A DNA stretch of 7,771 nt from Treponema sp. (GTDB lineage Bacteria > Spirochaetota > Spirochaetia > Treponematales > Breznakiellaceae). Below the pieces are notes generated by a model, which was not told the DNA's origin, did no database searches, and saw only the letters and a list, made by a program, of their open reading frames with translations. Where the stretch lies: assembly GCA_031275035.1 (NCBI GenBank), contig JAISPH010000202.1, positions 1-7,771 of the forward strand, given 5' to 3'. The translations under genes and the position numbers were made by a program. This document shows, one piece after another, positions 4,375 through 7,302 of the stretch. The stretch's first letter is position 1. Every line of letters begins with the position of its first letter.

Positions 4375-4683
4375 TCAGCGATTATGCAAAATAGCGTCTA
4401 TTTCCCTTTCAAAAACCAATAAAATTCTCTCTTTTTTATACTGTATTTCAGCCTCCTGTTCCAGAGAAACGCCGCCTGTATCCTGAAAAAATACTAAAGG
4501 ATCGACATTAAGAGCTTCGGCTATTCTTTCGATTGTAGAAAGTTTGGGGACGTTTCTGTAAATTTCCATTAGTCCGATATAACTAGTCGCCGTATTGCAC
4601 GCCTCAGCCAGTTTTTCCTGGGAAAATCCCTTTTCTTTACGTATACGCTTAATATTATCAATAACAAGCCGTTCCAAATGCAT
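4375..4683 (-). CDS. XRE-family HTH transcriptional regulator (XRE1)
   Basis: A 102-residue protein. Residues 7-62 form a five-helix Cro/cI-type HTH domain: IKRIRKEKGFSQEKLAEACN (helices 1-2), TSYIGLMEI (recognition helix about 32-41), VPKLSTIERIAEALNVDP (helices 4-5). Residues 74-98 are a charged amphipathic helix that could mediate dimerisation. The usual SxIExG turn after the recognition helix is altered to LMEIYRN, so contacts may differ from standard family members. The gene is visibly more AT-rich than the vWA and SpoIID genes that follow it on the same strand, suggesting a different origin or relaxed composition. The ATG has only a weak upstream ribosome binding site. It is divergent from the orphan lipoprotein gene across a 160-base AT-rich gap and lies 114 bases upstream of the vWA gene, so it could control either side. 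It is paralogous in style to XRE2. Confidence 0.9.
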   Translation of the reverse strand: MHLERLVIDNIKRIRKEKGFSQEKLAEACNTATSYIGLMEIYRNVPKLSTIERIAEALNVDPLVFFQDTGGVSLEQEAEIQYKKERILLVFEREIDAILHNR

Positions 4684-4843: not shown

Positions 4844-5737
4844 ATGAAAAAACGCTGGGTTTTAACAGGAACAGCCGGTATTTTGCTGGTGTCGGCTGTT
4901 GTATTTATGGGCTGTAATAATGGAACAACCGCTTCGCCGCCCCAAAGCAGGGAGTACATAGGCGCTTCAAGCGATGGAGCAATATATGTGGTGAGGATTA
5001 CCGGGAACAACTATGAATTGGTTCTTTTTAAGACTGATGGGACTGTCAAAACATCTACCGGCGCCTTTACCGGCGGCGGCGATTCGGCGCTCGTACTTGC
5101 GCCTACAGTCGCACCGGCGTCAACTATAGAAGTAACGGTAAACGACCAGGGAATAAACAGCATAACAGGAAGCATCACGTTTGACGACGGCTCCTCCGAA
5201 TCTGCCCCATCGGGGGTAACGCCGCAGGAGGGTATTTTTAAGGATGTCCAGTTGTACCGGATAACCGGATGGAGCCAGGAAAGCGGTGATGAAAAGAGCG
5301 GGGGGGCGGATGGATTTACGAACTATATGGGCGGCGGCGGGGTTCAAGCGCTTACGTTCAGGATAGGTAACATTGAGGCGTCCGGGCCCAGTACGCAATA
5401 CAAATCTCTCCCCGGAGCAACCGGTTCCATATCGGCGGACGGCAAGCTTACCATGAACCTTCCCGCATTTATTGACGACGCATACCTGTTTGACATGTCC
5501 AATCTCCTTCCCGGTGTTAGAGGAGGTCTGTTTACCAGCGATCCGGCGGTTACCCCGGTCAGGGCCGGCGCTTCGCCAAGAACGCCAAGCGTCTTTATGT
5601 ATCTAAACAAGGCCGCCACATACGACGGGGTTAACTATGTCCGGGGATGGAACGTAGGCGGCGGTTTCCCGTTTAATTCCTCCACCTATAAAATCGTTTA
5701 TGATCTTGAAGGGAACATCGCCGATCTGACTCCCTAA
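4844..5737 (+). CDS. Orphan lipoprotein of unknown function
   Basis: A predicted 297-residue lipoprotein that I do not recognise. The ATG at 4844 has a strong AAGGGGG ribosome binding site nine bases upstream and gives a textbook MKKRW signal peptide ending in FMG-C, so Cys24 should be lipidated. Phe at -3 is tolerated by spirochaete lipoboxes. An in-frame TTG at 4781 would bury the signal peptide and is less likely. The mature part is rich in Gly, Ser, Thr and Asp with alternating hydrophobic residues, suggesting an all-beta fold. An early segment (about 37-70: REYIG, IYVVRITGNNYELVLF) looks like a short beta meander, and residues 156-166 are a Gly-rich loop. No catalytic motif is apparent. 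It is divergently transcribed from XRE1, which is its probable regulator. It probably sits in the periplasm or on the cell surface. Confidence 0.82.
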   Translation: MKKRWVLTGTAGILLVSAVVFMGCNNGTTASPPQSREYIGASSDGAIYVVRITGNNYELVLFKTDGTVKTSTGAFTGGGDSALVLAPTVAPASTIEVTVNDQGINSITGSITFDDGSSESAPSGVTPQEGIFKDVQLYRITGWSQESGDEKSGGADGFTNYMGGGGVQALTFRIGNIEASGPSTQYKSLPGATGSISADGKLTMNLPAFIDDAYLFDMSNLLPGVRGGLFTSDPAVTPVRAGASPRTPSVFMYLNKAATYDGVNYVRGWNVGGGFPFNSSTYKIVYDLEGNIADLTP

Positions 5738-5755
5738 GGCGGGAATACCGCCGGA

Positions 5756-5779
5756 CCCGCCCTGAAGCCGGCGGGCGGG
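5756..5779 (+). other. GC-rich inverted repeat after the lipoprotein gene
   Basis: CCCGCCC (5756-5762) and GGGCGGG (5773-5779) are perfect 7-base arms around a 10-base loop, starting 19 bases after the lipoprotein stop codon. No T-run follows. It may protect the mRNA 3' end or contribute to termination together with the next hairpin. Confidence 0.35.
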
Positions 5780-5796
5780 ATCGCGGATACAATTAT

Positions 5797-5831
5797 GCGC
5801 CGCCGTATAGCGGCGCGTAAATCCTTCTTTT
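5797..5831 (+). terminator. Possible intrinsic terminator for the lipoprotein gene
   Basis: GCGCCGC (5797-5803) pairs with GCGGCGC (5810-5816) around a 6-base loop. A pyrimidine-rich tract, TCCTTCTTTT, follows at 5822-5831. The tract starts several bases after the stem, so this is a weaker terminator than the one at 5984-6013, which would act as a backup. Confidence 0.4.
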
Positions 5832-5884
5832 CATTACCGGCCCAACGGGCTGATTGGAAGGCGGGGATCCATACCTATCGGGAC

Positions 5885-5916
5885 GACTCTCCCCGCTGCC
5901 TGCGGCGGGGAGAGTC
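5885..5916. other. Perfect 12-bp stem hairpin
   Basis: GACTCTCCCCGC (5885-5896) is exactly complementary to GCGGGGAGAGTC (5905-5916), with an 8-base loop TGCCTGCG. The stem is stable but has no T-run on either side, so it is not a standard intrinsic terminator. It immediately precedes the composite palindromic element starting at 5921 and may belong to it. Confidence 0.6.
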
Positions 5917-5920
5917 ATTG

Positions 5921-6076
5921 GACTTGTTCGATAACCCGGTTGGTTATCGCGGACTTTCGTCCGGCACAAGTCTCCCAAAAAACGTGGATTTCATTAAGAA
6001 ATCCACATTTTTTGTTGTTTTTAAGCGGTTGTTGGCGAACCTTGGTTCGGCAGAAACTGAAGTTTCTGAACAACTC
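5921..6076. repeat. Composite palindromic element: two three-way-junction units flanking a terminator
   Basis: Unit A (5921-5972) has closing arms GACTTGT/ACAAGTC (5921-5927/5966-5972) enclosing two adjacent hairpins: CGATAACC/GGTTATCG (5929-5936/5942-5949) and CGGAC/GTCCG (5950-5954/5959-5963). Unit B (6028-6074) has closing arms GTTGTT/AACAAC (6028-6033/6069-6074) enclosing CGAAC/GTTCG (6036-6040/6045-6049) and CAGAAAC/GTTTCTG (6051-6057/6062-6068). Read in reverse complement, B has the same order of elements as A. Its outer end GAGTTGTTC matches A's GACTTGTTC in 8 of 9 bases. The one mismatch is a paired C-G to G-C swap, and the small hairpins differ by a paired G-C to A-T swap. The whole is a quasi-palindrome centred near the terminator at 5984-6006. 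No target-site duplication or open reading frame of substance is visible. It could be a dispersed repeat, a MITE-like remnant or a structured RNA. Confidence 0.55.
5977..6013. terminator. Bidirectional intrinsic terminator between convergent genes
   Basis: GTGGATTTC (5984-5992) and GAAATCCAC (5998-6006) form a perfect 9-bp stem with a 5-base loop ATTAA. Six T's (6008-6013) follow on the plus strand and six A's (5977-5982) precede it, giving a T-run on the minus strand as well. It can end transcription of the lipoprotein gene from the left and of the outer-membrane protein gene (stop at 6090) from the right. Confidence 0.85.
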
Positions 6077-6089
6077 TATTAAACCGGCC

Positions 6090-6773
6090 CTAGAATTTAT
6101 ACCCCACCGCAAATTTGAGGGAAGGCCCGTGGCCTACGCCCTGATCGACAGACACCGGAGACGACGGATACATGGCGATACATATTCTTTCGAGCTCATC
6201 TTCAGCATTAGTGTTCTGCCTGAAACCGTAGAGAAATTCCCCCCGGAGAAACAGGGTCTCGGTAAGGGCAAAATCGGCGCCGAAACCGAACTTGTACCAA
6301 AAGGCATTGAAGTCCTCCGTATCGGTGCTTATAGGGATAGGTCCCAGACCGGAAACTCGACCGGAGAGGAAAAGCTGGTACTCAACGCCCAGCAGGGGAA
6401 AAACGGAAATTTTGCCAAAGACAAAGGGGTACTTTCCAAAAACGCCGATAATTAAACCCGTGAAGAGGGAATCTTCAGTGGGAACAACAATGTTCGTCTT
6501 CCTCTGACCGGCAAAGTAACCCAGGTTCACTTCGAAATAGGTAGCGTCAAAGAACCCGAAAAAACCGAAAGACGATAAGTCTGTTTTTCCGTAGGGAGAA
6601 TATTCTATGGGAACGCTAGATAAAGTCGTCTGGCGGGAAGCTTCCGCTTCCTTATAGTCCCCCGCATAGAAGATGCCGCCCCCGATGCTAAAAGTAAAAG
6701 GGGGCGGGTTCAGAGCAAAGGCTCCTCCAGCCAGGACGAGAATAAAAATCGACAGGGTAATTGCTTTTTTCAT
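6090..6773 (-). CDS. Outer-membrane beta-barrel-like protein
   Basis: A 227-residue protein with an MKK signal peptide (hydrophobic core 5-18) cleaved after AFA at residue 20, so it is exported and not lipidated. The mature part is made of alternating hydrophobic and polar strands rich in Phe, Tyr and Gly (for example FTFSIGGGIFYAG, GFFGFFDATYFEVNLGYF, LFLRGEFLYGF). The last strand, LKFAVGYKF, ends in Phe, the classical outer-membrane-protein C-terminus recognised by the BAM machinery. The size fits an 8- to 10-stranded barrel of the OmpW/OmpA-membrane-domain class, but no specific family is recognised. The start has a strong AGAGGA site seven bases upstream. A leader of about 90 bases separates it from a perfect consensus promoter. 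It is divergent from XRE2 and convergent with the lipoprotein gene. Confidence 0.8.
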   Translation of the reverse strand: MKKAITLSIFILVLAGGAFALNPPPFTFSIGGGIFYAGDYKEAEASRQTTLSSVPIEYSPYGKTDLSSFGFFGFFDATYFEVNLGYFAGQRKTNIVVPTEDSLFTGLIIGVFGKYPFVFGKISVFPLLGVEYQLFLSGRVSGLGPIPISTDTEDFNAFWYKFGFGADFALTETLFLRGEFLYGFRQNTNAEDELERICIAMYPSSPVSVDQGVGHGPSLKFAVGYKF

Positions 6774-6942: not shown

Positions 6943-7302
6943 ATGTCGATGACCTTACAGGAAACATTTATCGTCAATCTTAAAAAATTCCGTAAAAAAA
7001 GGGGCATATCGCAGATGGCCCTTGCCCAACTATGCGATACCAGCGGCAATTACATCGGAGAAATTGAGACGGGACGGCGGATCCCATCCTTTGAAAAGAT
7101 AGAAAAAATCGCCTGGGCCCTTCAGATTGCCTCATATCAGTTGTTTGTGCAGGAAACCAGTGAGAACGCCGCGGAAGAAGACTTACAAACCGGAGATTTT
7201 CTTAACGGCCTTCCCCATAAAATAAAAAGAGAAATTACGGGCCGTCTTTTGTCCGCAATTCATAAGTGCATCGACGAATCCTTTGATGCAAACAATTATT
7301 AG
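6943..7302 (+). CDS. XRE-family HTH transcriptional regulator (XRE2)
   Basis: A 119-residue protein. Residues 10-65 form a Cro/cI-type HTH domain: VNLKKFRKKRGISQMALAQL (helices 1-2), SGNYIGEIETGRRIPSF (recognition helix and the conserved E-x-G-x-R-x-PSF turn), EKIEKIAWALQI (helices 4-5). After an acidic linker (about 71-82), residues 88-112 are predicted helical and may dimerise or sense a signal. Compared with XRE1 the HTH aligns without gaps over most of its length, so the two are members of one family. No Shine-Dalgarno sequence precedes the ATG (nor the in-frame ATG two codons later), suggesting poor or leaderless translation. It is divergent from the outer-membrane protein gene; three operator-like palindromes lie in the gap, so it probably represses that gene and itself. 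Confidence 0.92.
   Translation: MSMTLQETFIVNLKKFRKKRGISQMALAQLCDTSGNYIGEIETGRRIPSFEKIEKIAWALQIASYQLFVQETSENAAEEDLQTGDFLNGLPHKIKREITGRLLSAIHKCIDESFDANNY

What the first reader, a model, noticed from the sequence alone, without database searches (positions are those of the whole stretch)
5921..6076. Two mirrored three-way-junction elements around a bidirectional terminator
Bases 5921-5972 and 6028-6074 each fold as a closing stem around two hairpins with almost no unpaired junction bases. In reverse complement the second has the same architecture as the first. Their outer ends (GACTTGTTC and GAGTTGTTC) match in 8 of 9 bases, the difference being a swapped base pair (C-G to G-C). The small hairpins CGGAC/GTCCG and CGAAC/GTTCG differ by a paired G-C to A-T change. 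Compensatory changes argue for a selected structure, not chance. The relative orientation is somewhat ambiguous because the small hairpin also aligns in direct orientation (13 of 17 bases, 5950-5966 against 6036-6052). A dispersed MITE-like repeat, a structured RNA or a cruciform are all possible.
Basis: partly seen in the sequence, partly recalled or inferred. Interest (0 to 1): 0.7.

Follow-up and report, generated by a model that had tools for sequence, protein, structure and literature searches.

The report
Treponeme MITE with hairpin ends
The two mirrored folded elements are the two ends of one 158-base miniature jumping element, related to an IS5-type insertion sequence, that is scattered in many copies through genomes of related treponemes; it is a new family of a well-known kind of mobile DNA.

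Summary
The two three-way junctions and the terminator between them form one unit, 5920-6077 (158 bp), with ATT on both sides (5917-5919, 6078-6080). It is a MITE (miniature inverted-repeat transposable element). In related Treponema/Spirochaetaceae MAGs it is dispersed: 14 of 17 genomes give a match. In one, G010, 772,635 bases hold 108 near-full copies. Flanking 3-mers agree in 79 of 99 copies against 54.0 shuffled (0 of 5000), consensus Y-ANT-R: a 3-bp target duplication. Two inserts lie in other repeats whose empty copies carry one ANT; a third is less clear. Three IS5-type insertion sequences in these genomes carry the same ends and ATT duplications. The mirror symmetry is that of terminal inverted repeats, each prolonged into a hairpin; the Y shape comes from a small hairpin in the inner strand. 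Paired changes are real but do not by themselves show a selected RNA. Copies are not enriched between convergent genes and show no clear orientation bias, so a host role as terminator is unsupported. New member of a known kind; interest moderate.

The parts
5917..5919 (.). Left target-site duplication, ATT
   Evidence: Sequence; same 3-mer on both sides in 79 of 99 G010 copies
5920..6077 (+). Whole MITE, 158 bp
   Evidence: Borders fixed by alignment to copies in other genomes and by the flanking 3-mers
5920..5936 (+). Left terminal inverted repeat GGACTTGTTCGATAACC (16 of 17 like the IS end in L161)
5920..5973 (+). Left end hairpin, Y-shaped; the side hairpin 5950-5963 lies in the inner strand
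   Evidence: Folds; 13 of 20 aligned copies lack a side hairpin here
5976..6014 (.). Central hairpin with A-run and T-run, terminator-like; its sequence differs between subfamilies
   Evidence: alignment
6018..6028 (+). Linker TTTTTAAGCGG, of a type conserved in the copies
   Evidence: Alignment of 20 copies
6027..6075 (-). Right end hairpin, Y-shaped; the side hairpin 6036-6049 lies in the inner strand
   Evidence: Folds; 16 of 20 aligned copies lack a side hairpin here
6061..6077 (-). Right terminal inverted repeat, read from outside AGAGTTGTTCAGAAACT
   Evidence: Sequence: 8 of the outer 10 and 11 of the outer 17 bases like the left end
6078..6080 (.). Right target-site duplication, ATT

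Best explanation
The feature is one copy of a MITE family, a non-autonomous relative of an IS5-type (probably ISL2-group) insertion sequence of treponemes. A transposase made by such an IS would bind the outer ends (RGACTTGTTCGA..AACC), mobilise the element and insert it into Y-ANT-R sites, duplicating ANT. Shown here: unit borders, copy number, target duplication, empty sites, and IS copies with the same ends and the same duplication. Inferred: that this transposase moves the MITE in trans. Each end is prolonged inward as a self-complementary hairpin and the middle is a hairpin with flanking A and T runs; these may stop transcripts from running through the ends or simply be tolerated, and no function of them is shown. 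The Y shape arose, by inference, when small palindromes were added to the inner, less constrained strand of each end hairpin.
For: Dispersed copies: 10 of 14 genomes with the window query at E 0.1, 11 of 11 genomes of the genus of G010 with a G010 copy as query at E 0.001, 14 of 17 in either; some are short matches. In 20 G010 contigs not picked by hits (171,069 b) there are 24 hits, 20 near-full. Of 123 non-overlapping G010 hits 108 are near-full. Target duplication: 79 of 99 usable copies (108 near-full, 9 too near a contig edge) carry the same 3-mer on both sides, 54.0 expected by shuffling, 0 of 5000; the pairs include GTT/GTT and TTT/TTT. Position -4 is T or C in 94 of 99, +4 is A or G in 79 of 99. 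Empty sites: L092 and L210 inserts against repeat copies that run across the junction with one ANT. IS partner: L160/L226 873 bp, L225 901 bp, L224 775 bp, each with ATT on both sides and AGACYTGTT ends. DDE_Tnp_1 matches lie inside all three (1.8e-13 in L225, 3.9e-7 in L224, 3.2e-4 and below the cut-off in L160). One-ended copies give HTH_Tnp_4 1.7e-8 (L177) and DDE_Tnp_4 2.3e-16 (L222), and NF033581 IS5 family transposase far below its cut-off. Side hairpins lie in inner-strand columns in all rows of A1 that have them. Single-arm changes: 39 in the terminal strands, 94 in the inner (copies share ancestry, so not independent).
Against: No transposition was observed. No whole genome of the window's own species is held, so its copy number and IS are unknown. 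None of the three two-ended IS copies was shown to be intact (L160 has stops in the transposase frames); L222, the nearest to intact, has two overlapping frames and no right end was found. G002, G004, G005 and G016 have MITE matches but no match to the L177 transposase part. In 20 of 99 copies the flanking 3-mers differ. The L096 insert aligns with empty repeat copies at 77-79% but these have no ANT at the junction.
Confidence: 0.94

Rival explanations
1. REP/BIME-like repeats moved by a RAYT or IS200/IS605-type Y1 transposase that recognises hairpins.
For: Hairpin ends; Y1_Tnp matches are many in G010, G013 and G015 (18, 17, 25), three genomes with many copies.
Against: These enzymes leave no target duplication (recalled), yet one is seen. 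Of 12 Y1_Tnp loci fetched (short flanks, 12 of 62 matches) one holds an element, L155, some hundreds of bases from the gene, and 11 none. G007 has 50 element matches but one Y1_Tnp match; G017 has element matches and no Y1_Tnp.
Confidence: 0.03
2. A structured RNA (small RNA or paired regulatory elements) selected for its fold. Not exclusive of the MITE reading.
For: Strong folds; covariation score 0.160 against 0.073 shuffled, 0 of 500.
Against: No Rfam match at gathering scores; tandem-gene copies lie in either orientation (24 opposite, 21 same); the central hairpin differs in sequence between subfamilies.
Confidence: 0.04
3. A mobile bidirectional terminator kept by the host to insulate convergent genes. 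Not exclusive of the MITE reading.
For: Terminator-like hairpin at 5984-6006; in the window it lies between two convergent reading frames, 4844-5737 (+) and 6090-6773 (-).
Against: In G010 5 of 67 placeable copies lie between convergent genes (14.5% of gap length) and 17 of 67 between divergent ones (26.2%); chi-square p 0.22 against gap length, 0.063 against gap number (crude gene calls, 32 of 99 copies not placed).
Confidence: 0.05
4. attC sites of a chromosomal integron.
For: Imperfect palindromes in many copies.
Against: A two-ended unit with fixed borders and a 3-bp duplication, on both strands of many contigs. An integron integrase was not searched for.
Confidence: 0.01

Closest known systems
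Prokaryotic MITEs (review PMC10969869; its parts 2 and 3 and passages read)
   Same: Under 500 bp, terminal inverted repeats, target duplication, mostly intergenic, many copies, stable fold, an IS with the same ends in the genomes
   Different: Each end is a hairpin of its own; Y-shaped variants. Whether the likeness to the IS stops at the ends (type II) was judged by eye only
IS5 family, ISL2 group (group and its ANT target recalled)
   Same: The partner IS has HTH_Tnp_4 and DDE_Tnp_4/DDE_Tnp_1 domains, the same ends and ATT duplications
   Different: The MITE encodes no transposase; the IS ends printed do not look like hairpins by eye (not folded)
SPRITE, RUP and BOX of pneumococcus (named in passages of PMC10969869)
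   Same: Small dispersed elements; SPRITE terminator-like; elements inserted in one another
   Different: Other sequence and host phylum; RUP target TA (recalled)
ERIC and Correia elements (copy numbers from PMC10969869)
   Same: Short, palindromic (ERIC size and shape recalled), up to hundreds of copies
   Different: Other ends and targets (recalled)
IS605 stem loops on Borrelia plasmids (PMC2775950, listing and start of abstract only)
   Same: Hairpins of a mobile element in a spirochaete
   Different: Y1-type transposase; no target duplication (recalled)

Membership tests
MITE | Short (<500 bp), no own transposase | tested here: met
   158 bp in the window; copies 106-172 bp. Reading frames that cross it run out of it; they were not searched as proteins
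MITE | Terminal inverted repeats | tested here: met
   8 of the outer 10 bases alike in the window; same ends in copies
MITE | Target-site duplication | tested here: met
   79 of 99 against 54.0 shuffled, 0 of 5000
MITE | Many dispersed copies with uniform borders | tested here: met
   108 of 123 hits near-full in 772,635 b of G010; own genome not held
MITE | Empty sites | tested here: met
   L092 and L210 against empty repeat copies with one ANT; L096 less clear; L216 against L006 at 73% only suggestive
MITE | Autonomous relative with the same ends | tested here: met
   L160/L226, L225, L224 have both ends and transposase parts, not shown intact
MITE | Mobilised in trans by that transposase | not testable with these tools
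   Needs a transposition assay
IS5 family, ISL2 group (the partner IS) | DDE transposase of the IS5 type | tested here: met
   PF13359 2.3e-16 and PF01609 4.3e-10 in L222; PF13613 1.7e-8 in L177; NF033581 below its cut-off
IS5 family, ISL2 group (the partner IS) | Placement in the ISL2 group by a tree with reference ISs | not tested
   ANT target recalled for ISL2; no reference set used
REP/BIME with RAYT | Y1 transposase gene flanked by the repeats | tested here: not met
   11 of 12 fetched Y1_Tnp loci without the element
Rfam RNA families | Match at gathering score | tested here: not met
   0 matches in the window

The most novel reading that the evidence does not exclude
The end hairpins are actively kept symmetrical: copying of one arm from the other during replication or repair (template switching) makes both arms change together, and small palindromes settle only in the inner strand because the outer strand must stay readable for the transposase. 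The MITE would then be a natural record of palindrome correction in a bacterium.
Probability: 0.2. Interest if true: 0.55.

Novelty: new member of a known kind. Interest (0 to 1): 0.35.

Why it matters
It explains palindromic, terminator-like repeats in treponeme genomes that would otherwise be read as RNAs or regulatory elements, and ties them to a transposase. Several G010 contigs begin or end inside a copy, so the family probably breaks assemblies. The G010 copies, about 40 of them listed at 93-100% to one query, are a natural test of how palindrome arms evolve together.

Tried and rejected
REP/RAYT, integron attC, host-kept terminator and selected RNA were considered; reasons are under the rivals. 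An integron integrase was not searched for, and no covariance model was built. Searches with the element in phages and plasmids, and with an exact left-arm pattern in viral contigs, found nothing; the protein of 4844-5734 found no confirmed relative in viral contigs. Synteny: of seven window proteins only the two xre-type ones matched the 14 loci L001-L014, so no orthologous empty site for the window copy could be shown. BLAST of the MITE against the transposase loci missed the IS partners although two of them (L127, L136) were in the set; the end pattern and a transposase search found them. In low-copy genomes the pattern hits are about as many as its backward control (0-3 per strand), so many are chance. 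The paired-change excess appears in one of two subfamilies only.

Literature: eight searches listed no paper on a treponeme MITE of this kind; most subscription papers are not held. PMC10969869: outline, two sections and passages. PMC12730594: passages. All others: listing and start of abstract.

Full report
What is there. Folding 5885-6085 gives four structures: a perfect hairpin 5885-5916, a three-way junction 5920-5973, a hairpin with A and T runs 5976-6014 and a second three-way junction 6027-6075. The first hairpin is not part of the unit: it ends just before the ATT at 5917-5919, and 5738-5919 gave no BLAST match in the loci held.

Other copies. The window comes from a relative of treponemes: its SpoIID-like protein is 50-55% identical (best segment) to 14 loci of MAGs named Treponema or Spirochaetaceae; five further loci are more distant bacteria. 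That these MAGs are from termite guts is recalled from their isolate names; no call says it. With 5915-6085 as query 10 of the 14 genomes gave a match at E 0.1; with a G010 copy as query 11 of 11 genomes of its genus did at E 0.001; 14 of 17 in either, G009, G011 and G014 in neither. Some of these are matches of 30 bases or so. G010 is the richest of those looked at: 123 non-overlapping hits in 772,635 bases held, 108 near-full. Part of that sequence was chosen because it had hits; the 20 contigs C1-C20 were not, and hold 24 hits, 20 near-full, in 171,069 bases, which would be some 380 in 2.7 Mb if typical (extrapolation). Copies of 108-110 bp (18 of 55) and 124-135 bp (37 of 55) were seen (55 of 60 hits analysed, the other five cut by contig ends or not fitting the end pattern).

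How it moves. Among 99 G010 copies with 12 bases on both sides the flanking 3-mers are equal in 79, 54.0 expected by shuffling, none of 5000 shuffles as high; 95 have ANT on the left, 92 on the right; the wider site is Y-ANT-R. Outside G010, 12 of 18 copies have equal flanks, among them AAT/AAT (L024, L042) and AGT/AGT (L047) (the search pattern favoured ANT). Of 95 G010 sites with flanks joined less one duplication, the L092 insert and the L210 insert lie in other dispersed repeats, and empty copies align across the junction at 83-89% with one ANT (two shown for each). The repeat round L092 itself ends beside a MITE-like end. The L096 insert, in the same repeat as L210, aligns with empty copies at 77-79%, but these have CAG or AAG at the junction. 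Further partial matches (L083, L102, L216) are not used as proof; L083 is two elements in tandem.

The partner. The pattern ANTNGASTTGTTC in 14 genomes pointed to a pair of ends in G017 (L160), and a transposase search to others. L160/L226 (873 bp), L225 (901 bp) and L224 (775 bp) carry AGACTTGTTCGAGAACC, AGACTTGTTTAATAACT and AGACTTGTTTAATAACC on the left, similar right ends, and ATT on both sides, with DDE_Tnp_1 matches inside. One-ended copies beside transposase frames are L161, L162, L173, L177 and L222. Protein pieces match HTH_Tnp_4 (L177 over the cut-off; L222 below it), DDE_Tnp_4 and DDE_Tnp_1 (L222). L222 has two overlapping frames round a run of eight A, which looks like a programmed frameshift (inference). 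The first frame of L177 found matches in 10 of 17 genomes; G002, G004, G005 and G016 have MITE matches and none of these.

The shape. In an alignment of 20 chosen copies the two end hairpins pair in 92.6% of cells (88.0 shuffled), with 10 pairs changed on both sides (4.7 shuffled) and covariation 0.160 (0.073 shuffled, 0 of 500); slid structures reach at most 45% pairing (the structure was taken from one of these copies, which favours it). The central hairpin keeps its form but not its sequence. The side hairpins that make the Y lie in inner-strand columns in the rows that have them (7 of 20 left, 4 of 20 right), and single-arm changes in G010 copies are fewer in the terminal strand (39) than in the inner (94) (not independent). 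Both fit a terminal strand held by the transposase. Changes on both arms are common in G010 (31 standard and 7 non-standard double cells in 42 long copies against 10.9 if independent; 27 and 2 in 57 short copies against 8.5), but many are inherited. Counting only states seen in one copy, paired changes are in excess in the long subfamily (9 against 0.93, maximum 5 in 1000 shuffles) and not in the short (1 against 0.83) (one outlier copy dropped from each).

Function. Crude gene calls in G010 placed 67 of 99 copies between two genes: 5 convergent, 17 divergent, 45 tandem (p 0.22 against gap length, 0.063 against number of gaps, with fewer convergent and more divergent than expected); 5 of 99 lie in a frame of 110 aa or more; in tandem gaps 24 copies run against and 21 with the genes. 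This is the picture of a tolerated intergenic element, not of a terminator placed by selection.

Verdict. A MITE family related to an IS5-type IS in treponemes, not found in print by eight searches of the held library. It meets the features of a MITE that could be tested; mobilisation in trans is inferred. Its hairpin ends and Y variants are unusual, but the kind is known.

Noticed in passing
G010, G013, G015: Y1_Tnp matches, mostly with modest Pfam scores, are many (18, 17, 25), as in RAYT-like families; their own repeats were not looked for.
   Followed up: partly
L096, L210, L082, L183, L218, L188, L190; also L111, L113 of G013: A second dispersed repeat, about 80-100 bp in the aligned part, hosts MITE insertions in G010.
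   Followed up: no
G010, G013, G007 loci: Small palindromes CGGACT..AGTCCG and CGAACC..GGTTCG are over-represented (G010 8 and 2; shuffled controls mean 0.23, max 3), inside MITE copies and, by eye, outside them too.
   Followed up: partly
window 4375-4683 (-) and 6943-7302 (+): Two xre-type regulators matching the same stretch of L013 stand outside the frames 4844-5737 and 6090-6773 that flank the MITE; these two have no Pfam match.
   Followed up: no
window 5885-5916: Perfect 14-pair hairpin directly before the left target duplication; no repeat of 5738-5919 in the loci held.
   Followed up: partly
L030 1427-1498 and following: A MITE copy without a complete right end hairpin begins directly behind a tRNA-Glu gene in G013.
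   Followed up: no
L222 1504-2359: Two overlapping transposase frames round a run of eight A, like a programmed frameshift.
   Followed up: partly
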